49,277 bases of DNA from a virus (IMGVR_UViG_3300025030_000154:1-49277); one strand, 5' to 3'. Positions 36,317 through 49,206 are shown, counted from the first letter of the stretch. Program-made: numbers and translations. The notes: generated by a model not told the origin, from the sequence alone.

Positions 36317-36588
36317 TTACGCGCCTCGTCGTAGTATCCGCGCTCCAGGCAACCCGCTAGGACCTGCTCACGGGCCGTTGCCACATCGGCCCCCCGGCCG
36401 GAAAGGATGCGGTGCATGGTCTCCGAGCTCTGGCGGGCGTCCCAGGTCTCGGCGGCGGCATGCTGCAGATTGCCGGTAAGCAACGCCCGGCCGATCTCCA
36501 GCACCTCGGAAAGCAGGTGCCACCACTGGCGCCAGAGGGAATTGGAAACGAAACGGGTGGCGGGGAACTGGTACAACGGTTGCTTCAA
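36313..36588 (-). CDS. Small helical protein before terS, MazG-like style
   Basis: A 91-residue helical protein ([26 protein letters not shown]...[10 protein letters not shown]...GYYDEARK). The spacing of E/D and the QSxETxxRI segment recall short MazG-related phage proteins that hydrolyse nucleotides, but key metal ligands are few, so this is tentative. It uses a TTG start at 36588 after GGAGGTG, overlapping the integron-type integrase stop. Confidence 0.4.
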
Positions 36589-37751
36589 AGGGCACCTCCC
36601 TGTGCTGCAGTTGCGATGATGCGGCCGGCGGCCTCGGCTACGGTGAGCCCGAGGCGCCCGCCGTAGGCGACCAGGAAGCGACGTACCTCGTCGCCGATTT
36701 TCACGGTGATGCTATCCCCGTTGCCGCAGATAAGGCGGTCAAGCGGGCTTTTCGTGTCGAAGCGCTTTTGCATTACGTGCGTGTAGACTTCGGTGGTTTT
36801 CACGCACTTGTGCCCGAGCAGATCCTGCACCCTGCGGATATCGACGCCGTCCTCGAGGAGGTGGGTGGCGTAGCTGTGGCGCAGGGTGTGCGGGTGGGCC
36901 GGTTTGTGGATGCCTGCGGCCCGCACCGCGGACTTGAAGGCCTCCTGCACGGCGGAGACGTGAAGGTGGTGGCGCGCCTGGCTGCCGTCCCCTCGTGTGA
37001 AACGCTCGAAGGCGGGGAAGAGCCATTGCCAGGAGAGGCTTTTGGCGTAGGCCGGGTATTTCCTCCCCAGTGCGTCCGGCATCTCTACCACACCCCATCC
37101 GGCCGCCAGGTCGGACTGGTGCAGTTCCGCCACCTTGGCGATCTGAACCTTGAGAGGCTCGACGAGCGACTCTGGGAGCGGGATCGAGCGCGAGTTGCCG
37201 TGCTTGGAGTCGTGCAGGACGATCTGCTTGGATCCGAAGTCGATATCCTTGATTCTCAGCTCCAGGCAGTCCACCTCGACGCGCAGGCCGCATCCGTACA
37301 TGAGCGCCGAGGAGAGCCAGTACACACCTTTAAGCCGGCCCAGGATGGCGGCGACCTCCTCGCGGGTCAGAACGCAAGGAAGGTGACGGGAGCGCCTGGC
37401 GCGCAGCGCGTTGACGTTGCCGACCTCGACCTTGAGCACGTGACGGTAGAAGAAGAGGATGGCGTTGAAAGCGACGTTCTGAGTCGAAGCGGAGATGCGC
37501 TTTTCTTGCGCGAGGTAGGTCAGATATTCCTGTATGGCCCCCTCCGCGTGCGCGTCGGTGCGATGACGCGCCCGGAACAAGATGAAGTCGACCACGTAAG
37601 CCTGATAAGAGCGGATCGTGGAAGGGCGGCAGTGGCGCAAGGCAAACACTTTGCCGAGCTGCTCCAAAAGCGGTGCGATCTGGCGGCTTTTCAGGATTTC
37701 ATTATCAGCGCTGTTCAACTTGCAAATGCCCGGTATCGTGTAGGTTCCCAT
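36585..37751 (-). CDS. Integron-type tyrosine integrase (IntI family)
   Basis: A 388-residue recombinase distinct from the 8124 integrase. Catalytic residues: Arg157 (GCGLR), Lys183 region (DSKHGNSR), His288 and Arg291 (HTLRH), His314 (LGHK), Tyr323 (VYTHV). Between about 215 and 262 it has the extra segment typical of IntI enzymes ([27 protein letters not shown]...[13 protein letters not shown]), needed to bind folded attC DNA. About 45 extra residues follow the catalytic domain. A GGAGGAAAGC site precedes ATG 37751. Two attC-like sites lie upstream in the same strand. The family call is strong. Confidence 0.82.
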
Positions 37752-38308: not shown

Positions 38309-38397
38309 GCATAACCCCTCGCTCGTCCCGCCAAGTTGTAAGCAGCTTTTACAGGTTCGTAGAAGCTGGCGGCGGGCCAGCTCGAAAACCGTTAACT
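38309..38397 (-). repeat. attC-like recombination site A
   Basis: Minus strand: AGTTAAC (38397-38391, containing the methyltransferase stop), GGTTTTCGAGCTG, CCCGCC, a central spacer, GGCGGGACGAGCGAGGGG, GTTATGC (38315-38309). An imperfect palindrome of 89 bp with inverse-core and core boxes in the order expected downstream of a cassette gene. Arms are shared with site B (19 of 20 at one end, 17 of 17 at the other). Confidence 0.72.
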
Positions 38398-39129
38398 GCC
38401 GAACGCCAGCACCTCTTGAGACAGGCGCTTGACAATCTTCTCGCAATATTCCTCTTTGCCCTCAATGCCCACCGCGTGCAGACCCAACTCCCGCGCCACG
38501 GCCAGCGTTGTACCGCTCCCCACGAAAAAATCTACAACCTTCCCACCAGGAGGAACCGAGCATTCGAGCAGAGGTCGGACAATGCCATCCGGTTTCTGCG
38601 TAGGGTGAACCGCCTGTTTATGGCAACTCCGCACCTGTATCACCGACCGCTGGAGCCGGTCTTCGCTCTCCTGCGCCTTGAATCCGCCGATAACACCGGT
38701 ATGCGCCTGTTTTTCGTTCCTGCGTCCATAGTTTTTCCAACCACCGGCCATTCTAGGCGGCTCATTGTAGAGGCTACGCCACTCGCCGCGGTAGAAGTGC
38801 AGGGCCAGTTCGTGGACCCGCTTGAACCGGTCTTTGGCGAAGCCGCTGCCATTGTGCTTTTCCCACACGACGTCTTGCGCGAGCTTCCACGCCCTGAAGT
38901 CGTCGCGGTGCTCTAGGAACATCCTCATAGAACCAAAGCACCACATCTGCGGCGCGACCGACTCCGCGATCTTCACCCACCCTTCCGGCCAGCGGTCCCA
39001 CTCCAGCGACGTTTCCCCGTACGGCGGATCGGTAATGATTGCGTCAGCAGTCAGGCCGACGGCAGGCACAACCTCGCGCATGTCGCCGCAGTACAGGGTG
39101 ATCAGGTTGTCTTGGTAGTAAGGTTTCAT
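38392..39129 (-). CDS. Orphan DNA methyltransferase, integron cassette gene
   Basis: A 245-residue amino-methyltransferase: DPPY at 34-37 (catalytic motif IV), HPTQKP at 175-180, and DFFVGSGTT at 200-208 (AdoMet motif I). Motif order IV then I is that of beta-class adenine-N6 or cytosine-N4 enzymes; DPPY favours adenine. No restriction partner is nearby, so it may protect phage DNA from host restriction. The gene is bounded on both sides by attC-like sites, making it a cassette. Confidence 0.85.
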   Translation of the reverse strand: MKPYYQDNLITLYCGDMREVVPAVGLTADAIITDPPYGETSLEWDRWPEGWVKIAESVAPQMWCFGSMRMFLEHRDDFRAWKLAQDVVWEKHNGSGFAKDRFKRVHELALHFYRGEWRSLYNEPPRMAGGWKNYGRRNEKQAHTGVIGGFKAQESEDRLQRSVIQVRSCHKQAVHPTQKPDGIVRPLLECSVPPGGKVVDFFVGSGTTLAVARELGLHAVGIEGKEEYCEKIVKRLSQEVLAFGS

Positions 39130-40323: not shown

Positions 40324-40509
40324 CTATCCCTTATCCTGGTACTGCGGCTTCAGGGTGTACGCCCCCTCGCCGTCTTTTATCAGTTTGGCCCCCACCGCCT
40401 TCGGGTTGGTCGAGGCGAGGCTGTCGGCGAACTCTTCGGCGGTAAAGCCGACGGGGACGTTGTAAGTGCGCCCCTCGAATTTCACTGTGATGTCGGTTTG
40501 CTGGTCCAT
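40324..40509 (-). CDS. PRTRC system protein C-like (61 aa, beta-grasp candidate)
   Basis: A small protein, VKFEGRTYNVPVGFTAEEFADSL..., ending QYQDKG. The C-terminal Lys-Gly and the segment STNPKAVGAKLIKDGEGAYTL match my memory of PRTRC system protein C, a small ubiquitin-like (beta-grasp) member of ParB-related, ThiF-related cassettes. The start at 40509 follows GGAGA; a longer frame to 40539 is unlikely. If it is Ubl-like, its C-terminal Gly would be the adenylation target of the nearby ThiF-like protein. Confidence 0.6.
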   Translation of the reverse strand: MDQQTDITVKFEGRTYNVPVGFTAEEFADSLASTNPKAVGAKLIKDGEGAYTLKPQYQDKG

Positions 40510-40528
40510 CTGCACGGTCTCCTTTTGG

Positions 40529-40810
40529 CTAGAATGCACTCATTTCTTCTGCGGGTTCTTCTGGAAGCGCTGCAGGCCCGGCGCCTGCGGGGCGAGCGGT
40601 TCGCGTGGCTTCCCTCACCTGCTTCTCCATCGCATCGAGGAGCTCCGCCTGATCGGCAGCCGGGAGACAATCGGAGCTCACCTTCTCGGTTTTAAAATGC
40701 TCTCCGACACAGACCGTTCTGGTGATCTGCTCGGGGAGTCGGACGGCGCCGGGGACCAGCTGGGCCGGGTCAATCTGGAAGTGATAGGCAACCTGCACTC
40801 GTGTCTGCAT
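40529..40810 (-). CDS. Unknown protein between PRTRC C and ThiF (93 aa)
   Basis: A beta-type N-terminal half (TRVQVAYHFQIDPAQLVPGAVRLP...ITRTVCVGEHFKTE) and an acidic, Pro/Ala-rich tail. It lies exactly between the ThiF-like and C-like genes. It could be a diverged PRTRC E, but length and sequence do not show this. Confidence 0.35.
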   Translation of the reverse strand: MQTRVQVAYHFQIDPAQLVPGAVRLPEQITRTVCVGEHFKTEKVSSDCLPAADQAELLDAMEKQVREATRTARPAGAGPAALPEEPAEEMSAF

Positions 40811-40813
40811 GCT

Positions 40814-41575
40814 CTACGCTCCTTTTAGGTAATCTCTGGTAATGAAGGCGGAGGTCATCCGTCCCTTTGCAACGTCGAAATAAATAGCGGGTGTCGTCAA
40901 CTCGCCCTTCACCAGGAGCTGGTGCAGTATCGCGAGCCCCGCGGCCGCCGCCCACTCGTTGGCGAACACACCCTGCTCGGCAAAAGGGGTATCCGCGCAC
41001 GAGGGTGCTTTCGCCTTGGGACGCCTCAGCTTCGCCATGCCGGCCAGAAGGTAAGGGTTGGGGAGATGGGCGACGTGCGGCGACTTATCCCACTCCCGCA
41101 CCTGGAGGCCGATCGCTTTCTTATCCTCCGTGGTGCCGAACAAAGCCTGTCCTGTTTCCAGCCCGTTGCCCAAGTCAAGCCAGCACCCTTGCCCCTTGTA
41201 CGGCTTCCTGCTTTCAACCGTGTCGACACAGGTGACGACAAGACGCTCGTGACGCGAGCTGCTCTTCAGCCAATCCTCTCCCCTTGCCTGCAGGGCCCCA
41301 AACTTGAGCCCGTATTGCTGGTTCAGTCGGTAGGCCAGGGCGGATGCCTTGGGTTCCTCTATTTCCCAGGGGAAGAAAGCCTGCCTCGCGCAGTTCTTCT
41401 CCTCGACAACGTCCGGATCCACAAGGAGCACGTCCACGGAGAGCCGGTATCCTGCCACCATCTTGGCGAGCCCTTGCGCGAGATAGCTCCCGGTACCGCC
41501 GGTGCCTACGATCACGACGTTGCGGAAGTGCGGGGCCAGATATCCCTTTCTGTTCTGCGGCTGTTTGTCTGTCAT
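40814..41575 (-). CDS. PRTRC ThiF/E1-like protein
   Basis: A 253-residue E1-like adenylating protein: Gly-rich loop IVGTGGTGSYLA (residues 22-33), acidic pair VDPDVVEEKNCARQAFF with Arg64, and a candidate catalytic Cys193 (SCAD). In the PRTRC family such ThiF proteins are thought to activate a small ubiquitin-like partner. It overlaps the B-type gene by ATGA and is in the middle of the cassette. Confidence 0.75.
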   Translation of the reverse strand: MTDKQPQNRKGYLAPHFRNVVIVGTGGTGSYLAQGLAKMVAGYRLSVDVLLVDPDVVEEKNCARQAFFPWEIEEPKASALAYRLNQQYGLKFGALQARGEDWLKSSSRHERLVVTCVDTVESRKPYKGQGCWLDLGNGLETGQALFGTTEDKKAIGLQVREWDKSPHVAHLPNPYLLAGMAKLRRPKAKAPSCADTPFAEQGVFANEWAAAAGLAILHQLLVKGELTTPAIYFDVAKGRMTSAFITRDYLKGA

Positions 41576-42237
41576 GCTTTCGCCTCCAGGAGCTGCTTGC
41601 CGGTACCCAGCTTGTTGAGGGTTTTGAACGGACAGCGGCCGCCGTACTTCTTGTGGTAGTCATAAAAAGGGATCTGCCCGATCCCGACGATGTTGTTGTG
41701 CCAGTTGAACGGTGTGTCGAAGACGGTTTTCTCAGCAGCCTTCCGCACGTTGCCATCCGTCGCGCGGTGGGTGGAACCGAGGCACATGCGCGAGCCGCTC
41801 AGGTTCGGCAGCGGCAACTCGTACAGCACCGTGTCCGGCTTGAGAACGGCGCCGGAGAAGCCCCAGATCTCAATGCCGTTGATCTTGCGGCCGGCGCTGT
41901 CGACGCGAACCTTGAGAGCAAGAGAAGGGAACTTCATCTTCAGTGCCGTGAGCTTCCCCTTCGACTTACGCTTCGGGCTGTGACCCTTGCGATACAGGAT
42001 TGTTCTCTCCGAAGCCGGCAAGGTGATCAGATAGGTTTCGGCATTCCCGCCCTTCTTCATCCAAACCAGACCGGGGAAAGGCCTGAACGTCAGCTCCGTA
42101 TGGAAAAACTGCATCAGTTGCTCCTGAGTCACCACGAAGCGGCGCTCACCATCACCGGTGAAATCGGACAAGACGATCTCCTCCTCGAAGATGCCAATGC
42201 CGTACAGCTGTTTCTGCAGGTATCCTTCGTTGTTCAC
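41572..42237 (-). CDS. PRTRC system protein B-like
   Basis: A 221-residue protein with a GTG start at 42237 overlapping the F-type stop. ELPLPNLSGSRMCLGSTHR (about 155-173) contains an isolated Cys in a conserved-looking loop, which in comparative studies is proposed to make this family E2-like (ubiquitin-conjugating fold). Other segments (LYGIGIFEEEIVLSDF, YLITLPASERTIL) are beta-rich. Assigned by position in the cassette plus this motif. Confidence 0.65.
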   Translation of the reverse strand: MNNEGYLQKQLYGIGIFEEEIVLSDFTGDGERRFVVTQEQLMQFFHTELTFRPFPGLVWMKKGGNAETYLITLPASERTILYRKGHSPKRKSKGKLTALKMKFPSLALKVRVDSAGRKINGIEIWGFSGAVLKPDTVLYELPLPNLSGSRMCLGSTHRATDGNVRKAAEKTVFDTPFNWHNNIVGIGQIPFYDYHKKYGGRCPFKTLNKLGTGKQLLEAKA

Positions 42238-43304
42238 AGTTCCCCCTTCCTGTATCTCACCGCCAGCCTGCTCTGTTTGGGGCTCACCCATTTAACCGAC
42301 CTTTTGCCGTGTACCTTCCGCCATACTTCGCATACCTCATGGATAAAGATCTCAGCCGTCCCTTCCTGCGTGTTGTCCCACATGAGGTAGGGGTCAGGTA
42401 TGGCTCCATCCATGGCAGCGAACGCTTCGCTATAAGCGAGGGCGAAATCGATGTCCTCTTTTTTCGTGATAGTGAGATCGTTGTCCCAGCCGCCGTCACC
42501 GTCGATGATGGCGAATTCCATTTCCCAATATTTCGGAAACTTTTCTACAACCGGAGCGAAGTAGCTTTCCTCCACATTGGCCAGCTTCTTGAGGTCAACG
42601 GTACGTTCCCCGTCGTAGTCGTGATAGGCCTGCACCAAAGCCTGGAGCCCGATCTCCCCGATCAGCTTCAGATCCTGCCGCGGCAGCTCGATTTCAAGCC
42701 CTTCCGACTCGCCCAAAATGTGCTCCAGCAGCGAGTGAACACCGCTGACTCCGCTTAGGAACGCTTCAACGACCCCCCCGCCTTCATCCTGGTAGCTGTA
42801 GCAGGGGATCATCAGGTTCAGACATTCGAGACTGGTGAGCGGCGTATGCTCGCCGATGTCCTCGAGGTGCATCCCCAAGCCGTAGTAGTCACTGGCGCGC
42901 GTCCACAGATCATCCACAAAGGCGGACAAGCTGGCGCCGTTGCAAGGGGCTTGAAGCAGATCTTCCTTCGCCAGACCGTTCGCCAGGTACCACTCCCACA
43001 CGGCGCGGACCGACTTGAACAGATCGGGAGAGAGCAGCTTGTGGGATGCGACCAGTTTGCGAGGGGCCGGAAGCGGCCGCCGGCTGCGGCGCTGTGTAGG
43101 CTCAAAGTGCTGGGTCCCGGCAATCTTGGAGCTGATGACGTTTCCACAGTTATCTCTGGCGCACCATGGGTAGATCTCCTGCCAGGGACGCAGCAGGTCC
43201 CCCATCTCTTTAACCGGAACGGTGGTAGCGCGATCCGGCATTACGGACAGAACCCCACCGGCCACAGCCTCTGTGATCCGCTCTATGATGACGGCGACGC
43301 CCAT
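42234..43304 (-). CDS. PRTRC system protein F-like
   Basis: A 356-residue protein between the ParB-like and B-like genes, the usual position of PRTRC F (a family without known function). Contains RPWQEIYPWCARDNCGNV, a helical SAFVDDLWTRASDYYGLG, and a beta-rich C-terminus. The start is 3 nt after the ParB stop. Assignment is by gene order and length. Confidence 0.55.
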   Translation of the reverse strand: MGVAVIIERITEAVAGGVLSVMPDRATTVPVKEMGDLLRPWQEIYPWCARDNCGNVISSKIAGTQHFEPTQRRSRRPLPAPRKLVASHKLLSPDLFKSVRAVWEWYLANGLAKEDLLQAPCNGASLSAFVDDLWTRASDYYGLGMHLEDIGEHTPLTSLECLNLMIPCYSYQDEGGGVVEAFLSGVSGVHSLLEHILGESEGLEIELPRQDLKLIGEIGLQALVQAYHDYDGERTVDLKKLANVEESYFAPVVEKFPKYWEMEFAIIDGDGGWDNDLTITKKEDIDFALAYSEAFAAMDGAIPDPYLMWDNTQEGTAEIFIHEVCEVWRKVHGKRSVKWVSPKQSRLAVRYRKGEL

Positions 43305-43307
43305 GAC

Positions 43308-45104
43308 CTAGCCTTTCCTCGCCCCGAGGACCTCGGCCGGGACGCGGCCGGCGAGATCGGCGCCGCTCTTCATGATGGCGTCGATGAGCGCTTCTTTGGG
43401 TAGAGAGTGGAGCGCCTTCCCCTTGTGGTGCTGCTCCCAGTAGGCGACCACCTTCTTGTCGGACCAGATGTTAATGTCGGGCTCCTCGCCGATCCGGACG
43501 ATCTCGCTCTTGCTCAGCTCCTGGAGGTACTCCGCCGTGAAGGCCCAGTCGCTCACCCGCACTCCGAAAAATCCGGCGGCGAGTCTGCGCACGTCGGCCG
43601 ATACTCCGTTCCCTTCCATCAGCTGGGCCAGTGCGGCCTGGCGCAGCGCGCTGTCTATCTCTTCTGCCAGCATGTCGTCAAATATCCTGCTTGCCACCAC
43701 GCCGGTGTCGGAGTTGTTGCCGAGATCGAGGAGCGAATCAACAACCTTTCGCGCCGGGAGCGATACCGATGCAAGAGCCAGCAGGGCAAGCCCAGTAATG
43801 CGGGTATCATCGAAAGTCGCCTGTTTAACCGCTTTCTCCAGACGCTCTTTCAGGAAGCTCTGGCGATACTTCTCCCCCCTGGGTGCGTTGAAGACCGGAG
43901 CATCAGGAGTATCCACCGGCTTGCTCTTGGCAGGAGGAGCCGTCTGTCGCTTTGCCACTGGAGGCGGAAAGGAAACCTTCCCCGGGGACTGGACTACTTT
44001 TTCCGGCGTTTCCTGTTTTTTGCCCACCGGGTTCTCAACCGGCGGAGAAGCAACGACTTTCTCGGGCTCCGGGGTGGGCGAAACTTGCGGCGCGAGATAC
44101 AGCTCCTCGAAGCAGTTGCGCGGGCCAATGCAGGTGCGCTCATATCCGGAGACGACGGCGCCGGTCAGGCGGAGCACCGAGACGAAAAGGTCGCACTGCA
44201 GGCAGCGCTGCGCCGTCTCCTTGCCGATGATCGGCTCCCGGTGCTCGTTGCCCAGCCGGTGCCCGAAGCGGAAGCCGCGCGTGCCGATCTGTGCGTGCGC
44301 CTTGCTCTGCAGCCAGTTCGCCTCCAGGAACGCGGACTGCTTCACCTCGAAGCAGTTGCTGTTGCTGCATTTGCCGCCGGGGGTGACGTCGGCGAACAAC
44401 CCGGACTGCACCGCTGTGTTGTGCATGCAGACCTGGCAGTCGGCTTTGTCGAAGAAGCCGCGCTCGAGCTCCGGGCAGATCGCGCCGATCCTCTCGCCGA
44501 GCTCGCGAACCGTGAGCTTGCTCCTCAGGCACGCCGTCAGCAGCTCCAGGATCTGCGCGGAGTCGGCGACGCGCGTGAACATCTCGACGTGGGACTGGGT
44601 AAGCGCTCCATCTCTCCAGGCGGTGAGGACCTCGGCGGGTAGCTCCAGCATGCGCACCTGACGCCGGATCGCGTGGGTCGGGATGCCGGTACGAGCCGAT
44701 ATCTCTGCCACCGATTCAGGAGTACTCCCGTAGCGTCCCAGATAAGCCTTGAAGGCCTGCGCGGTTTCGAGGGGAGAGAGGTCCTCGCGCTGCAGGTTCT
44801 CGATCACCATCAGGTCGAAAGCTGCGTCGTCGTCGACTTCGCGCACCATGCACGGAACCTCGGAGAGTTCCGCCTGCAGTGCGGCACGATAGCGCCGCTC
44901 GCCGGCAATCACTTCGAAGTTGCCCGAGGCGAGGGGACGGACCAGAAGGGGCTCGATGACACCCTTACCCCGGACCGACTCAACCAGCTCCGCGAAGCGG
45001 GCCCGGCGCTGCGGCGTCATGTTCTCCTCAAACCGGCGGGCGTTGTACTCGTTGGGGGTGAGCTCTTTAAGGGCTATGTTGGCGAAGCGCGCTTCATTCG
45101 ACAT
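43308..45104 (-). CDS. PRTRC ParB-like protein
   Basis: A 598-residue ParB/Spo0J-type protein. N-terminal ParB/sulfiredoxin-like domain with IAGERRYRAA (about 66-75, the CTP/DNA-clamp motif in ParB proteins) and ENLQREDLSP (102-111), then the KorB-type helix-turn-helix region (VAEISARTGIPTHAIRRQV). A Cys-rich middle (CQVCMHN...CSNSNCF...CLQC) follows, then a Pro/Lys linker and helical C-terminus. ParA is not seen. It is the first PRTRC gene after primase and could aid copy stability or replication control. Confidence 0.75.
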   Translation of the reverse strand: MSNEARFANIALKELTPNEYNARRFEENMTPQRRARFAELVESVRGKGVIEPLLVRPLASGNFEVIAGERRYRAALQAELSEVPCMVREVDDDAAFDLMVIENLQREDLSPLETAQAFKAYLGRYGSTPESVAEISARTGIPTHAIRRQVRMLELPAEVLTAWRDGALTQSHVEMFTRVADSAQILELLTACLRSKLTVRELGERIGAICPELERGFFDKADCQVCMHNTAVQSGLFADVTPGGKCSNSNCFEVKQSAFLEANWLQSKAHAQIGTRGFRFGHRLGNEHREPIIGKETAQRCLQCDLFVSVLRLTGAVVSGYERTCIGPRNCFEELYLAPQVSPTPEPEKVVASPPVENPVGKKQETPEKVVQSPGKVSFPPPVAKRQTAPPAKSKPVDTPDAPVFNAPRGEKYRQSFLKERLEKAVKQATFDDTRITGLALLALASVSLPARKVVDSLLDLGNNSDTGVVASRIFDDMLAEEIDSALRQAALAQLMEGNGVSADVRRLAAGFFGVRVSDWAFTAEYLQELSKSEIVRIGEEPDINIWSDKKVVAYWEQHHKGKALHSLPKEALIDAIMKSGADLAGRVPAEVLGARKG

Positions 45105-46563
45105 TGGTTCCTCCTCTTTCCGTTTGGTCTTCTCTCTCTATTACCGGCGGCCTTGCTGCGAAAACCTCCCAGGCGCGCTCGTAATACCTGAGCAGCTTCT
45201 TCAGCGCGCCCTCGAGCTTCTCTTCGTCCGCCGACGCGAAGGCCAGATCGACTGCGTCCTCTGCTGCCGCGATGTGCCCCTTGATTTCCTGCTGTTTCTG
45301 GAGCCACTCCATTCCGCCGTTGGGACAGCTCGATTCAATGAGGCTTCGAGCGTCCTTGATCCACTGCCAGCCCCTCTCATTGCTCCATTCACCCACCGCG
45401 GCCTCCTTGTTTTCGTCCTCTATCGCCCGCACAAGACCGTACTGGACCGTCATTGCCGGCGGCAACCCTGCCATCACCCAGGCGCGGATATCGACACCGC
45501 GGGAAAGGGCGTCGCCGGGATCCTTTCCGTCCAGCACCGGCCAGCGTTTCGCGCGGCGGTAATTTTTCAGCCACCAGCGCGCCGCCTTCCCGCCGGGGTT
45601 TTCGTAGTTTCCGGTGTTGGCGTTTTGGCGCGGCTCGAAATCGGTGGCGACCAGGATGACGAGCGCCTTGTCGAGTAGCGCCGCGGCCCGCGACTTGGGC
45701 TTGACGTCGCAGGACATGAGAGGCAGGGCGCCCACCAGGTCGCCGGCAACCCAGTCGATGAGGAGTCCGCAGAGGTCCGCCTCGACAACCACGAAGGCCC
45801 GGGCCGTCGGATTGAGAATCACGACGTCATCACCGGACCCGGAGACCGCCACGTAACCCGGCACGTCCTCGCTGCGGTCCTCTTCGGGAACACGGACCCT
45901 CACCCGATGGATCACTCCGTCGACGTAGGTGGGGATGACGATCCCGCGCGGCACCCAGAGCTTTTTCGGCTTACCGGTTTTCTTGCTGGTCTCTTCCGGC
46001 AAGCCCCATGACTCTCGCGACCGCCAGATCGTCTTCGCATTCCAGCCCAGCCGGTTCTTTAGCACCGCTTCAAGCGGGAGCCCACGGCCGGCAAGGTAGG
46101 CGAGCTGCTCGGGGCAGCTCAGCAGGGCCTCGTGGGCTTCGGAGACCACCTCTTCCGCTTTGGCCTGCCAGATCTCGGCCGGCGTCTTGGCGTCGCCAGG
46201 GGTGAAGGACGAGGAAGCTTTGGCCTTGGGGGTAGAGGGCGCGTCCCTGGGGTCTTTTTTGGGAGGTGCAACTCCGTTTCCCATCCTGCACTTGTCGGAC
46301 ACCGGGCAGGTGTTGGAGTTGCAAGCCTTGCCGGCTGCGGCATGGGCATCGGGGCAGCTCAGGTTCTCGAAACGGCGCAGGAAAGAGATGACATCGCCAT
46401 GACCGCAGTTGCGGCAGAACCAGCGACCGTCGGCCTTGACCGAAAAGCGGTCCGACTTGGCAGCGCCGCCGGGACCGTGACCGCACTCCGGACAGGGGCC
46501 GTGCCATTCGGAGCCGACTTTGCGCATCTCAACATGTCTCTGGACTATCTCAAGCAGTGTCAT
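45094..46563 (-). CDS. DnaG-type primase (CHC2 + TOPRIM)
   Basis: A 489-residue primase. Zinc ligands Cys24, Cys27, Cys50 and Cys53 form the CHC2 module (CPECGHG...FCRNCGHGD). An extra Cys cluster (ACNSNTCPVSDKC) lies near 80-92. A TOPRIM-like stretch (VVVEADLCGLLIDW, VILVATDFEPRQ) is at about 255-313. The C-terminal region is helical. It would make primers for the helicase encoded next, with the iteron-like DNA between them. Confidence 0.72.
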   Translation of the reverse strand: MTLLEIVQRHVEMRKVGSEWHGPCPECGHGPGGAAKSDRFSVKADGRWFCRNCGHGDVISFLRRFENLSCPDAHAAAGKACNSNTCPVSDKCRMGNGVAPPKKDPRDAPSTPKAKASSSFTPGDAKTPAEIWQAKAEEVVSEAHEALLSCPEQLAYLAGRGLPLEAVLKNRLGWNAKTIWRSRESWGLPEETSKKTGKPKKLWVPRGIVIPTYVDGVIHRVRVRVPEEDRSEDVPGYVAVSGSGDDVVILNPTARAFVVVEADLCGLLIDWVAGDLVGALPLMSCDVKPKSRAAALLDKALVILVATDFEPRQNANTGNYENPGGKAARWWLKNYRRAKRWPVLDGKDPGDALSRGVDIRAWVMAGLPPAMTVQYGLVRAIEDENKEAAVGEWSNERGWQWIKDARSLIESSCPNGGMEWLQKQQEIKGHIAAAEDAVDLAFASADEEKLEGALKKLLRYYERAWEVFAARPPVIEREDQTERGGTNVE

Positions 46564-46943
46564 TTCTGCGCTTCTCCTTCATGGTCATTAAATCGCCATA
46601 AATGGTCTTAAAAATAATCTTGCCAGTAAAGCCACTGTATTTATTGGCTTTTTTCTTAAAATATGACCATATGACTATTATTTTTATATTTGCTCAAAAG
46701 AAGTAAAAAAGTTTTTTTAGTAAAAGCAGCCCTTCCTGTCCCGTATGAAATAGTTTTGGCGCTCTTACGTGTACGTGCCCGCGCACGTCGTCATATGGTC
46801 ATATGCCCATAAAATGGCAAAATAACCGTTTAGTTCCGATAGCTTATAAAACCAGATTATTTTATGACCATTTTAGAAGGGCGAAATGGTCATAAAATGC
46901 CCCGCCCCCCTTGGGAAATTCCGTCCAGCGTAAAAGCCGATGG
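46564..46943. other. AT-rich intergenic region with iteron-like cluster
   Basis: 380 bp without genes, AT-rich. It contains the ATGGTCAT/ATGACCAT sites listed separately, A/T tracts, and a GC-rich island with ACGTGTACGTGCCCGCGCACGT palindromic character (about 46768-46790). A position between primase and P4-type helicase, with repeats, is what a replication origin needs. No clear promoter was identified, although the ParB/primase genes need one. Confidence 0.6.
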
Positions 46944-46947
46944 TCAT
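46581..46947. repeat. Iteron-like sites ATGGTCAT (six exact copies)
   Basis: Exact copies at 46581-46588, 46795-46802, 46886-46893 and 46940-46947 (forward) and 46663-46670, 46864-46871 (reverse), plus near copies at 46602, 46671 and 46803. Flanks are A/T-rich, suggesting a longer consensus. The last copy lies inside the end of the helicase gene. An 8-mer this frequent in about 370 bp is far beyond chance. Confidence 0.72.
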
Positions 46948-48812
46948 ACCTCGTGGGTGAGTATCCTCACCCCGTAGAGCCGCACCTGGCCGTTGCGCTC
47001 TTCGACCGTGAACCCCTTCTCGCGCAGCTTCTTCGAGGTGCCTTTCCCGGTCGGGAGATACTTCTTCGCTTCCGTGATCCGCTCGGCGAACCACTTCTGG
47101 TACAGTTCCTTGAACTCCTTGAACGGGATCCACTCTTCGTCGTCCACGCCCTTGCCGATATAGCGCCACAGATCGGGACGGTCATCGACATGGCACCCGC
47201 GGTTGCCGTCGGCAATGCTGGCATACTGAGCGGTATCGAACTGCGCCATGTCGCCGTTGTTGTAGCTCTGCCTGGGATCCCACGGCCGCAACGTGTGCGT
47301 CGTGAGGAACTGTTCCAGGTAATCCTCGCTGCGGCGGTGCTCCTCGACGTTGGCGACGATCTGGGGCGGTGGCGCCAGCCCGTGCTTCTGCCAGAGGGCG
47401 CAGCCGCGCACCAGCCAGGCGAGAATTCCGGGGTACTGGCTCTTTAGACGCGCCGTGAGCTGGTCGTCTTTTTTCCGGAAGAACCCGATGCGGGAGGGTG
47501 TCTTCGCCTCCTCTGCCGCGATATCGTCGACGAAGGAGTAGAGGAACTGGAACAGGACCAGGCGCCGGCGCAGGGCGAAGTCGGCGGTGAGGCCGTGCGG
47601 TATGTGGTTCGACTGCACGAACATGGTGTGGGTGGGCCCGAAGTTGGTCTCTTCCACGAAGAGTCCCCTGGCGTTCAACGTGTCGGCGCCGGTCAGCTCC
47701 TTCACCTTGGCCGCCGAGATGCGGCAGTGCTCGTCCGTCTCGGAAGCGATCACGATGCGGCGGCCGCGCAGGGCCATGATGTCCGTGGAGACGCTCGAAG
47801 AGTTCCGCGGCGTCTTCTGCTCCAGGATCATCTCCGGGAGGATCCTCCAGCAGAGGTCGCCCATGATCGCCTGAATCGTTTCGAAGATGACCCCTTTGCC
47901 GTTCGCCCCCTCGCCGACGAAGCACGCCAGTATCTGCTCGTGGCAGAAGCCGGTGATGGCGTAACCGAAGAGCCGCTGCAGGAACGCCCGGACCTCAGGG
48001 TCCGGCAGGCTGGATTCGAGCAGCGCTTCCCAGTCCGGACAGGGCGCATCGAGGCCGAGGTATTCGACCGGGACGCTCTTTACCAGCAGATCGGAAGGCC
48101 GCCCCGGGAGGAGCTCCGCCGTCTCCAGGTCGACCACTCCGTTCTCGCAGGCCAGTAGCCAGGGGCGCTGGTCGAGTTGCTCCGAGAGTATGGACAGAGG
48201 ATTTTCTACAACGGCAGCCCATGCGACGCAGTTTTTGGCCCCGACCATGGAGCGGAGGCGGTCGACCCTGCGCGTCAGGGCCTTCCTCCTGCTCATCAGC
48301 CCACTGAGGACCGCGGCAAAGCGGGACGCTTTCTCCGCCGCCTCCCTCGCTTCCAGATCCGCCTGGTACAGGGCGGAGGCGTCTTTATCCTTCTCCGCCT
48401 GCTTCACCCGCTTTTTGGCGGCCGCCACCTCGGCGTTTGCCTCCTGGAGAGAGGCGGTATTGCGGTCGATCGGGCCGTCAAGATCCTTCGCTTCATCGAG
48501 AAACGCGGTGGCCACCGCCTCCACGCCGCGCAGATGCTCGCTCTTGCGGTCCAGGCTCCAGTGGTGGGAACGCCACACCAGCCACTTCTTGTCGTCGGAT
48601 ACGTACAGGAAGCGGTCGCGCTGCAGATGCGTGTAGAGGATCCCGTCGCCGACCTCGTTGTTGGCGAGGCACTGCAGGATCAGCTCCGAGCCGGCAGCGG
48701 TCGCGTCCGGCGTAGCTGCGGGGTCCGCGAAGTGTTCGTTTTCCGCCTGGACCCGCTCCTCTACCTTGGCTTTTATCTCCTCCGGAGTAAGCAGCGGCAC
48801 ATCATCAAGCAC
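46944..48812 (-). CDS. P4-type primase-helicase (D5/SF3)
   Basis: A 622-residue replication protein. A coiled-coil insert lies at about 118-172, the D5_N-type region at about 185-290, and an SF3 helicase follows: Walker A GEGANGKG (300-307), Walker B-type IVIASETDE (about 355), and sensor VQSNHIPHG (about 400). The C-terminal region may bind the origin, as P4 alpha does with its iterons. The neighbouring repeat cluster supports that. It is coupled to the upstream zinc/HTH gene by overlap. Confidence 0.85.
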   Translation of the reverse strand: MLDDVPLLTPEEIKAKVEERVQAENEHFADPAATPDATAAGSELILQCLANNEVGDGILYTHLQRDRFLYVSDDKKWLVWRSHHWSLDRKSEHLRGVEAVATAFLDEAKDLDGPIDRNTASLQEANAEVAAAKKRVKQAEKDKDASALYQADLEAREAAEKASRFAAVLSGLMSRRKALTRRVDRLRSMVGAKNCVAWAAVVENPLSILSEQLDQRPWLLACENGVVDLETAELLPGRPSDLLVKSVPVEYLGLDAPCPDWEALLESSLPDPEVRAFLQRLFGYAITGFCHEQILACFVGEGANGKGVIFETIQAIMGDLCWRILPEMILEQKTPRNSSSVSTDIMALRGRRIVIASETDEHCRISAAKVKELTGADTLNARGLFVEETNFGPTHTMFVQSNHIPHGLTADFALRRRLVLFQFLYSFVDDIAAEEAKTPSRIGFFRKKDDQLTARLKSQYPGILAWLVRGCALWQKHGLAPPPQIVANVEEHRRSEDYLEQFLTTHTLRPWDPRQSYNNGDMAQFDTAQYASIADGNRGCHVDDRPDLWRYIGKGVDDEEWIPFKEFKELYQKWFAERITEAKKYLPTGKGTSKKLREKGFTVEERNGQVRLYGVRILTHEV

Positions 48813-49206
48813 CAGCGACCTCCGCCAGAGCCCGGAACTTCGCCTGCCAGTTGCGTACGGTGTCCTTGTGGACGTCGATCACTGCTGCGATTTTTGCGGC
48901 GGGCACTTCCAGTTCGGAGAGGACGGCAAGAAGGTAGACCTCGACGGGGTCGAGTTGCGATGACTGCAAAATGGTGCCGGTGAGCGACGTGAAGAAGCGG
49001 CCGCATTCCTTGCACTGGATGCGCTCGCACTGGTACCAGCGCTCGAGGCGCTTCTCATCGGAGATCCCCACCTTGCAGTGGGGGCAGCACGCGCCGGCCG
49101 GGTGCAGCTGGTCGACCACCCATCTGCCGACCGTCACCTTGGCGAGGCACTCTGCTGAAAAGCTGTCAAGACACTTGCAAGAGGATAAGCCCATAAAATT
49201 GTTCAC
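48805..49206 (-). CDS. Zinc-ribbon + helix-turn-helix protein
   Basis: A 133-residue protein. CCPHCKVGISD...YQCERIQCKECGRFF (about 40-72) is a zinc ribbon like those at the start of IS1/IS1595 transposases, followed by TGTILQSSQ and a helix-turn-helix (AAKIAAVIDVHKDTVRNWQAKF). No transposase catalytic domain follows, so it is a phage regulator that shares the DNA-binding part. The GTG start at 49206 follows GGAGGG at 8 nt. It heads the replication block. Confidence 0.68.
   Translation of the reverse strand: MNNFMGLSSCKCLDSFSAECLAKVTVGRWVVDQLHPAGACCPHCKVGISDEKRLERWYQCERIQCKECGRFFTSLTGTILQSSQLDPVEVYLLAVLSELEVPAAKIAAVIDVHKDTVRNWQAKFRALAEVAGA

What the first reader, a model, noticed from the sequence alone, without database searches (positions are those of the whole stretch)
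40324..45104. PRTRC cassette (ParB + ThiF + B + F + C) built into a phage replication block
ParB-like, F-, B-, ThiF- and C-like proteins occur in one overlapping run beside primase and helicase. PRTRC cassettes (ParB-related, ThiF-related) are known mainly from plasmids and integrative elements and have no established function. The C-like protein ends in Lys-Gly and may be ubiquitin-like, ThiF has an E1-like site, and B has an E2-like candidate Cys. Together they could be a mini conjugation pathway that modifies a replication or partition protein. In this phage it sits between primase and the integron.
Basis: partly seen in the sequence, partly recalled or inferred. Interest (0 to 1): 0.85.

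Follow-up and report, generated by a model that had tools for sequence, protein, structure and literature searches.

The report
JAB-less phage ubiquitin-like conjugation cassette
This phage carries, next to its DNA-copying genes, a small set of genes that looks like a stripped-down ubiquitin-tagging pathway (tag, activating enzyme, transfer enzyme) linked to a DNA-partition protein; it is a rearranged relative of the known but functionally unexplained PRTRC cassette of plasmids.

Summary
The run is real and lies where stated (40324-45104, minus strand). ParB, ThiF and B are PRTRC relatives by profile, all below the curated PRTRC cut-offs; B passes Pfam's Prok-E2_D cut-off. C gets no direct hit, but profile-profile comparison ties it to PRTRC C/Prok_Ub (P 7e-9) with the Lys-Gly ends aligned, and its model is a beta-grasp. 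"F" rests on position only.

Catalytic residues are intact. ThiF keeps the E1 adenylation residues and a Cys identical in 87/87 homologues. B keeps an E2-like Asn-x6-Cys pair (82/83 each). C ends exactly at Gly.

The phage type differs from canonical PRTRC: order ParB-F-B-ThiF-orf93-C, no E and no JAB peptidase (A), plus an extra 93-aa protein. It recurs in at least seven other viral or prophage contigs and plasmid pGSUB1. PRTRC in phages is common: at least 163 relatives in IMG/VR, and a full cassette in Burkholderia phage BgVeeders33.

Most likely it attaches C covalently to a phage or host DNA-maintenance protein. The enzymology is inferred from conserved sites; the target is a guess. The ubiquitin/E1/E2 reading of this operon type was published in 2006 (PMC1779556). 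New variant of a known, uncharacterised kind.

The parts
43308..45104 (-). PRTRC-type ParB (598 aa): ParB_N + HTH_ParB, then two Cys-rich clusters and a C-terminal region shared with PRTRC ParB
   Evidence: TIGR03734 187.5 bits over residues 34-591 (below cut-off 278.6), ParB_N 83 bits, HTH_ParB 54 bits; 48-55% identical in viral and prophage relatives
42234..43304 (-). 356-aa protein in the PRTRC F position (immediately upstream of B); homology to F not shown
   Evidence: no profile hit; hhalign to canonical F and to all F-slot clusters negative; conserved 36-43% in viral and prophage relatives
41572..42237 (-). PRTRC B, E2-like (221 aa from GTG 42237; 239 aa if ATG 42291). Asn 41803-41805 and Cys 41782-41784 (N163, C170 in 239-aa numbering) form the E2-like Asn-x6-Cys site
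   Evidence: Prok-E2_D 34 bits, above GA 25; N 82/83 and C 82/83 among homologues; AF2 pLDDT 89.9, VIA-align top match UBE2S Z 5.2 over 117 residues; start site
40814..41575 (-). PRTRC ThiF, E1-like adenylating enzyme (253 aa); Cys193 codon at 40997-40999 is the predicted thioester Cys
   Evidence: TIGR03736 119 bits (cut-off 144.75), ThiF PF00899 41.5 bits; G24, G26, G29, D53, D55, N61, R64, Q65, K76, D118, C193 identical in 87/87 homologues
40529..40810 (-). orf93: extra small protein found only in this cassette subtype; ends in an acidic stretch plus S-A-F
   Evidence: conserved in all intact window-type loci, 53-69% identity in viral and prophage relatives; no family hit; not related to PRTRC E by hhalign
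40324..40509 (-). C: 61-aa ubiquitin-like protein ending ...YQDKG
   Evidence: hhalign to canonical PRTRC C: Prob 95.2, P 7e-9, KG ends aligned; most conserved protein of the cassette in viral and prophage relatives, 74-90%; AF2 bbabb beta-grasp, pLDDT 82.7; Foldseek matches mostly ubiquitin and Ubl domains, prob up to 0.96
45094..46563 (-). primase with DnaG-type zinc ribbon, overlaps ParB start (neighbour, not cassette)
   Evidence: PF01807 27.6 bits, phrog_510
46944..48812 (-). P4-family helicase/primase C-terminal protein (neighbour)
   Evidence: TIGR01613 161.9 bits, above cut-off 108.7
46564..46943 (.). AT-rich intergenic repeat array (ATGGTCAT, inverted pairs): candidate origin iterons or ParB/parS-like sites; role not tested
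   Evidence: 6 of the window's 8 copies lie at 46581-46947; chance expectation 0.95 per window; perfect 15-nt inverted repeat

Best explanation
A phage-borne, minimal ubiquitin-like conjugation cassette of PRTRC descent. Inferred steps: ThiF binds ATP and adenylates the C-terminal Gly61 of C; C passes as a thioester to Cys193 of ThiF, then to the E2-like Cys of B, with the invariant Asn helping; B attaches C through an isopeptide bond to a target. C ends exactly at Gly, so it needs no maturation peptidase, which fits the absence of the JAB protein A found in other PRTRC cassettes. The same absence suggests that the modification is not reversed by the phage. Because the cassette is always linked to ParB and, where the flank is held, usually to the helicase and primase, the most likely target or place of action is the phage's own ParB/replication complex. 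Shown here: gene content, homology of C, B, ThiF and ParB, conserved catalytic residues, beta-grasp model, recurrent synteny, lack of A and E. Inferred: that conjugation takes place, the target, its purpose, and the roles of F and orf93.
For: C is a Prok_Ub relative with the KG end aligned and a beta-grasp model whose Foldseek matches are mostly ubiquitin and Ubl domains. ThiF adenylation residues and Cys193 are identical in 87/87 homologues; B's Asn and Cys are each kept in 82/83 and are the only two invariant columns of a 62-sequence alignment. Prok-E2_D is above its cut-off. The VIA-align rows near the top that cover the whole B domain (over 110 residues) are from E2 enzymes: UBE2S, a chain of the MavC-substrate complex, and UBE2L6. 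C's coding frame runs beyond KG only in cassettes that hold A/JAB: 33 of 50 with A, 0 of 25 without, as expected if JAB frees the Gly end; JAB maturation of BilA is reported (PMC11354881). C is the most conserved cassette protein in viral and prophage relatives. The cassette recurs as one unit in window, L005, L006, L007, L013, L018, L020, L099 and plasmid pGSUB1, and the ThiF subtype is a fully supported clade.
Against: No conjugate has been seen. B's structural matches are weak (Z 5.2, under the level that excludes a common arrangement; Foldseek found nothing below E 0.37). The JAB/extension link rests on few independent events (2-4 supported pairs, never in the opposite direction). No direct PRTRC C or F profile hit. 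ParB as target is inferred from linkage alone. ThiF/C pairs can also serve sulfur transfer.
Confidence: 0.6

Rival explanations
1. Counter-defence or host take-over: the same cascade attaches C to host proteins (defence or replication factors) rather than to phage ParB; ParB is only a fellow passenger. (Differs from the best explanation in the target only.)
For: E1/E2/Ubl systems work in the phage-host conflict (CBASS conjugation, PMC10097602; Bil operons, PMC11354881), and ThiF resembles PADLOC E1-E2 models over its adenylation domain.
Against: Every intact phage-type locus keeps ParB directly upstream, and the cassette type also sits on plasmids. No other defence-system partner was recognised in the cassette.
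Confidence: 0.2
2. Sulfur-carrier module: ThiF makes a thiocarboxylate on C (as in ThiS/MoaD), used to build a modified nucleobase or cofactor; B is a binding or acceptor protein.
For: ThiF/ThiS and MoeB/MoaD have the same adenylation chemistry and a beta-grasp partner; ThiF matches ThiF and MoeB families weakly.
Against: The ThiF profile matches ubiquitin, UBA6 and NEDD8 E1 chains best among solved structures, though only in the shared adenylation domain. An E2-type Asn-Cys protein accompanies it throughout. The C end is KG, not GG. No rhodanese or sulfurtransferase was recognised beside the cassette, though this was not searched for specifically.
Confidence: 0.12
3. Non-covalent segrosome: C, B, ThiF and F form a regulatory complex on ParB without enzymatic transfer, like YukD-type ubiquitin folds that are not conjugated.
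For: YukD is reported not to be conjugated (PMC1779556); the target is unknown.
Against: Near-absolute conservation of E1 and E2 catalytic residues and of the terminal Gly.
Confidence: 0.08

Closest known systems
PRTRC cassette (NCBIfam TIGR03734/36/37/38/41/42; operon type 6d of Iyer et al. 2006, PMC1779556)
   Same: ParB, ThiF/E1, B/E2_D and C/Prok_Ub, an unidentified protein in the F slot, tight operon on a mobile element
   Different: No A (JAB) and no E; order ParB-F-B-ThiF-orf93-C instead of ParB-E-C-F-B-A-ThiF; extra orf93; C too diverged for the PRTRC_C and Prok_Ub profiles; F not recognisable
Geoalkalibacter subterraneus plasmid pGSUB1 locus (L002)
   Same: Same subtype: ParB, F-like, B, ThiF, orf93, C in the same order, no A (ThiF 56% identical)
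   Different: Plasmid of 242 kb; small extra ORFs between the genes; annotated as ParB, ThiF and hypothetical proteins
Burkholderia phage BgVeeders33 PRTRC (OK665841, L003)
   Same: Phage-borne ubiquitin-like/E2/E1 cassette
   Different: Canonical type with E, C, F, B, A(JAB) and ThiF; C extends 62 aa beyond GTKG
Bil and CBASS Cap2/Cap3 conjugation systems
   Same: Bacterial E1 + E2 + ubiquitin-like logic (PMC11354881, PMC10097602)
   Different: Those act in bacterial defence and carry peptidases; no BilA-like double domain, fused E1-E2 protein or nucleotidyltransferase among the cassette proteins here

Membership tests
PRTRC cassette | PRTRC ParB (TIGR03734) above cut-off | tested here: not met
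   187.5 bits over nearly full length against cut-off 278.6; related but divergent
PRTRC cassette | PRTRC ThiF (TIGR03736) above cut-off | tested here: not met
   119.2 bits against 144.75; best family by far among ThiF families
PRTRC cassette | B of the Prok-E2_D family | tested here: met
   PF14460 34.0 bits, GA 25; TIGR03737 only 15.9 bits
PRTRC cassette | C of the Prok_Ub type with conserved terminal Gly | tested here: met
   no direct PF14454 or TIGR03738 hit, but hhalign P 7e-9 with KG aligned
PRTRC cassette | F (TIGR03742 / alpha-hel2) | tested here: inconclusive
   no hit and negative hhalign to canonical F clusters; slot position agrees
PRTRC cassette | A (JAB-domain protein) | tested here: not met
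   no Prok-JAB or RadC in the whole 49,277-bp record; no A in any window-type cassette
PRTRC cassette | E | tested here: not met
   no E profile hit in window-type loci; orf93 not related to E by hhalign
Ubiquitin-like conjugation system | E1-type adenylation site plus Cys | tested here: met
   G24, G26, G29, D53, D55, N61, R64, Q65, K76, D118, C193 in 87/87
Ubiquitin-like conjugation system | E2 fold with Asn and catalytic Cys | tested here: inconclusive
   residues met; fold match to UBE2S Z 5.2 only, Foldseek negative
Ubiquitin-like conjugation system | Covalent conjugates exist | not testable with these tools
   needs biochemistry
Bil / CBASS defence systems | Double-Ubl BilA, or CD-NTase with Cap2/Cap3 | tested here: not met
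   only adenylation-domain similarity of ThiF to E1-E2 models; no other partner recognised among cassette proteins

The most novel reading that the evidence does not exclude
Tailed phages carry a dedicated ubiquitin-like pathway, without a deconjugating enzyme, that irreversibly tags their ParB/replication complex (or a host factor) during infection.
Probability: 0.3. Interest if true: 0.88.

Novelty: new variant of a known kind. Interest (0 to 1): 0.6.

Why it matters
PRTRC has been a named gene cassette with no known function; its reading as a ubiquitin-like pathway dates from 2006, and I found no experimental test of it in the held literature. The phage version is the smallest form (one tag, one E1, one E2, no peptidase), its catalytic residues are nearly absolute, and it is linked to replication genes, so a handful of proteins expressed together can settle whether it conjugates and to what. 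If true, it would add a viral, replication-linked branch to ubiquitin-like modification in bacteria, which is so far known mainly from bacterial defence.

Tried and rejected
orf93 as a diverged PRTRC E: hhalign negative. F-slot protein against canonical F and against twelve F-slot clusters: negative. A JAB substitute: RadC lies near the cassette in L006's record only, and the JAB hit in L007's record is a separate gene away from the cassette. ParA: no AAA_31 hit in the window or viral relatives (other ParA models not tried). Direct solved-structure relatives of C: none; of B: only one E2 at E 0.76. Foldseek for B: no meaningful match. Phylogenetic test of the JAB/C-extension link: too few independent events for significance. 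Literature search for PRTRC together with ubiquitin: no paper in the held library. Five genome search terminase calls failed on input limits before a sample of 50 records worked.

Full report
WHAT IS THERE. The window is a linear IMG/VR virus record of 49,277 bases with terminase, head protease, capsid, tape-measure and tail-fibre genes, so it is a tailed phage or prophage. Read 5' to 3', the run is: P4-type helicase, 380-bp AT-rich gap, primase, ParB, F-slot protein, B, ThiF, orf93, C. Genes overlap or abut: B most likely starts at GTG 42237 inside F's stop, and C starts at ATG 40509 with an upstream AGGAGA.

PROFILE TESTS. ParB matches PRTRC_parB over nearly its whole length (187.5 bits) and ThiF matches PRTRC_ThiF (119 bits), both as clear best matches but under the curated equivalog cut-offs. 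B passes the Pfam cut-off for Prok-E2_D. C, F and orf93 hit nothing relevant.

RELATIVES. Loci of the same subtype were found in viral contigs L005, L006, L007, L013, L018 and L020 (L016 is partial), in a deltaproteobacterial MAG contig with a terminase, L099, and on plasmid pGSUB1 of Geoalkalibacter subterraneus, L002. All keep ParB-F-B-ThiF-orf93-C and lack A and E. In the ThiF tree they form a fully supported clade on a long stem. C is the most conserved member in the viral and prophage relatives (74-90% identity against 59-70% for ThiF and 36-43% for F).

C IS A UBIQUITIN-LIKE PROTEIN. hhalign of the phage-type C profile with canonical PRTRC C gives Prob 95.2 and P 7e-9, with the terminal KG aligned to GTKG, while control comparisons gave nothing. 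In 55 sequences the final Lys and Gly are the near-invariant end. AlphaFold2 gives a beta-beta-alpha-beta-beta beta-grasp, pLDDT 82.7. Foldseek's PDB matches are dominated by ubiquitin and Ubl domains (prob up to 0.96, E about 0.05 or higher); VIA-align's best are protein G/L, the same class of minimal fold, at Z about 5. For so small a protein this supports the fold but not, alone, the function.

E1 AND E2 SITES. Across 87 ThiF homologues, G24, G26, G29, D53, D55, N61, R64, Q65, K76, D118 and C193 are identical in all. Across 83 B homologues N163 and C170 are each kept in 82, and in a 62-sequence alignment they are the only invariant columns. The Asn with six residues before the Cys, in PLPNLSGSRMCLG, recalls the HPN...C signature of E2 enzymes (general knowledge). 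The downstream His that the 2006 paper called absolutely conserved is not conserved in this wider set. B's model is confident (pLDDT 89.9). VIA-align's top match is UBE2S (Z 5.2, 117 residues), with two more E2-type chains in the top ten covering the whole domain, but Foldseek alone finds nothing, so the E2 fold is likely, not proven.

THE MISSING PEPTIDASE. Canonical cassettes are ParB-E-C-F-B-A-ThiF, with A a JAB-domain protein. In the survey, C's reading frame continues 48-113 residues beyond the KG in 33 of 50 distinct cassettes that have A, and in none of 25 that lack A (Fisher 6e-9). This is what one expects if A cleaves a C precursor to free its Gly end, as BilC does for BilA (PMC11354881). 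Caution: on the tree the two traits change together only a few times, never in opposite directions, too few for significance. In the window type C ends exactly at Gly and no JAB gene is in the record.

PHAGE CONTEXT. PRTRC in phages is not exceptional. In a sample of 50 records, 20 matched one terminase profile and 8 another, the latter including the window and five window-type relatives. The published Burkholderia phage BgVeeders33 carries a complete cassette, annotated as hypothetical proteins apart from ThiF. The helicase-primase gap holds an iterated ATGGTCAT motif far above chance, and three relatives (L005, L013, L018) have different repeat arrays upstream of ParB; this may be an origin or a ParB site. 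No AAA_31 ParA was found.

MECHANISM. I judge a covalent ubiquitin-like cascade (ThiF, then B, then target) most likely, at 0.6. The target is inferred from linkage only: ParB or the replication complex first, host factors second. Sulfur transfer and a purely non-covalent complex are less likely given the E2-like protein and the conserved catalytic residues.

KNOWN VERSUS NEW. The ubiquitin/E1/E2/JAB reading of this operon type was published in 2006 as row 6d (PMC1779556), and Pfam names already reflect it. New here, as far as the held literature shows, are the JAB-less, reordered phage subtype with orf93, its recurrence, the breadth of PRTRC in phages, and the link between C extension and JAB. 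It should not be filed as a standard PRTRC member, since A and E were tested and not found; it works like, and descends with, PRTRC.

Noticed in passing
36585-37751 (-): Integron-type integrase (TIGR02249 342 bits, above cut-off 265) between the terminase genes and an orphan DNA methyltransferase; attC sites not searched.
   Followed up: no
46564-46943: AT-rich repeat array (6 ATGGTCAT copies, perfect 15-nt inverted repeat) between helicase and primase; relatives L005, L013 and L018 have other repeat arrays upstream of ParB.
   Followed up: partly
L003 (OK665841, Burkholderia phage BgVeeders33): Complete canonical PRTRC cassette in a cultivated phage, annotated as hypothetical proteins apart from ThiF.
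   Followed up: yes
L025-L098 (IMG/VR loci): C proteins with 48-113 aa beyond the Lys-Gly end occur only where the JAB gene A is present; many extensions end in Gly-Phe and were not analysed.
   Followed up: partly
40529-40810 (-): orf93 homologues share an acidic C-terminal tip ending in Phe (EMSAF, ELSAF, EISAF, LDLF), reminiscent of SSB tails; untested.
   Followed up: partly
L006:5759-6202: A RadC-type JAB protein gene lies just upstream of ParB in this relative only.
   Followed up: partly
48805-49206 (-): 133-aa zinc-ribbon plus HTH protein upstream of the helicase, 51% identical to an ORF at the same place in L005.
   Followed up: no
38392-39129 (-): Orphan N6/N4 DNA methyltransferase downstream of the cassette.
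   Followed up: no
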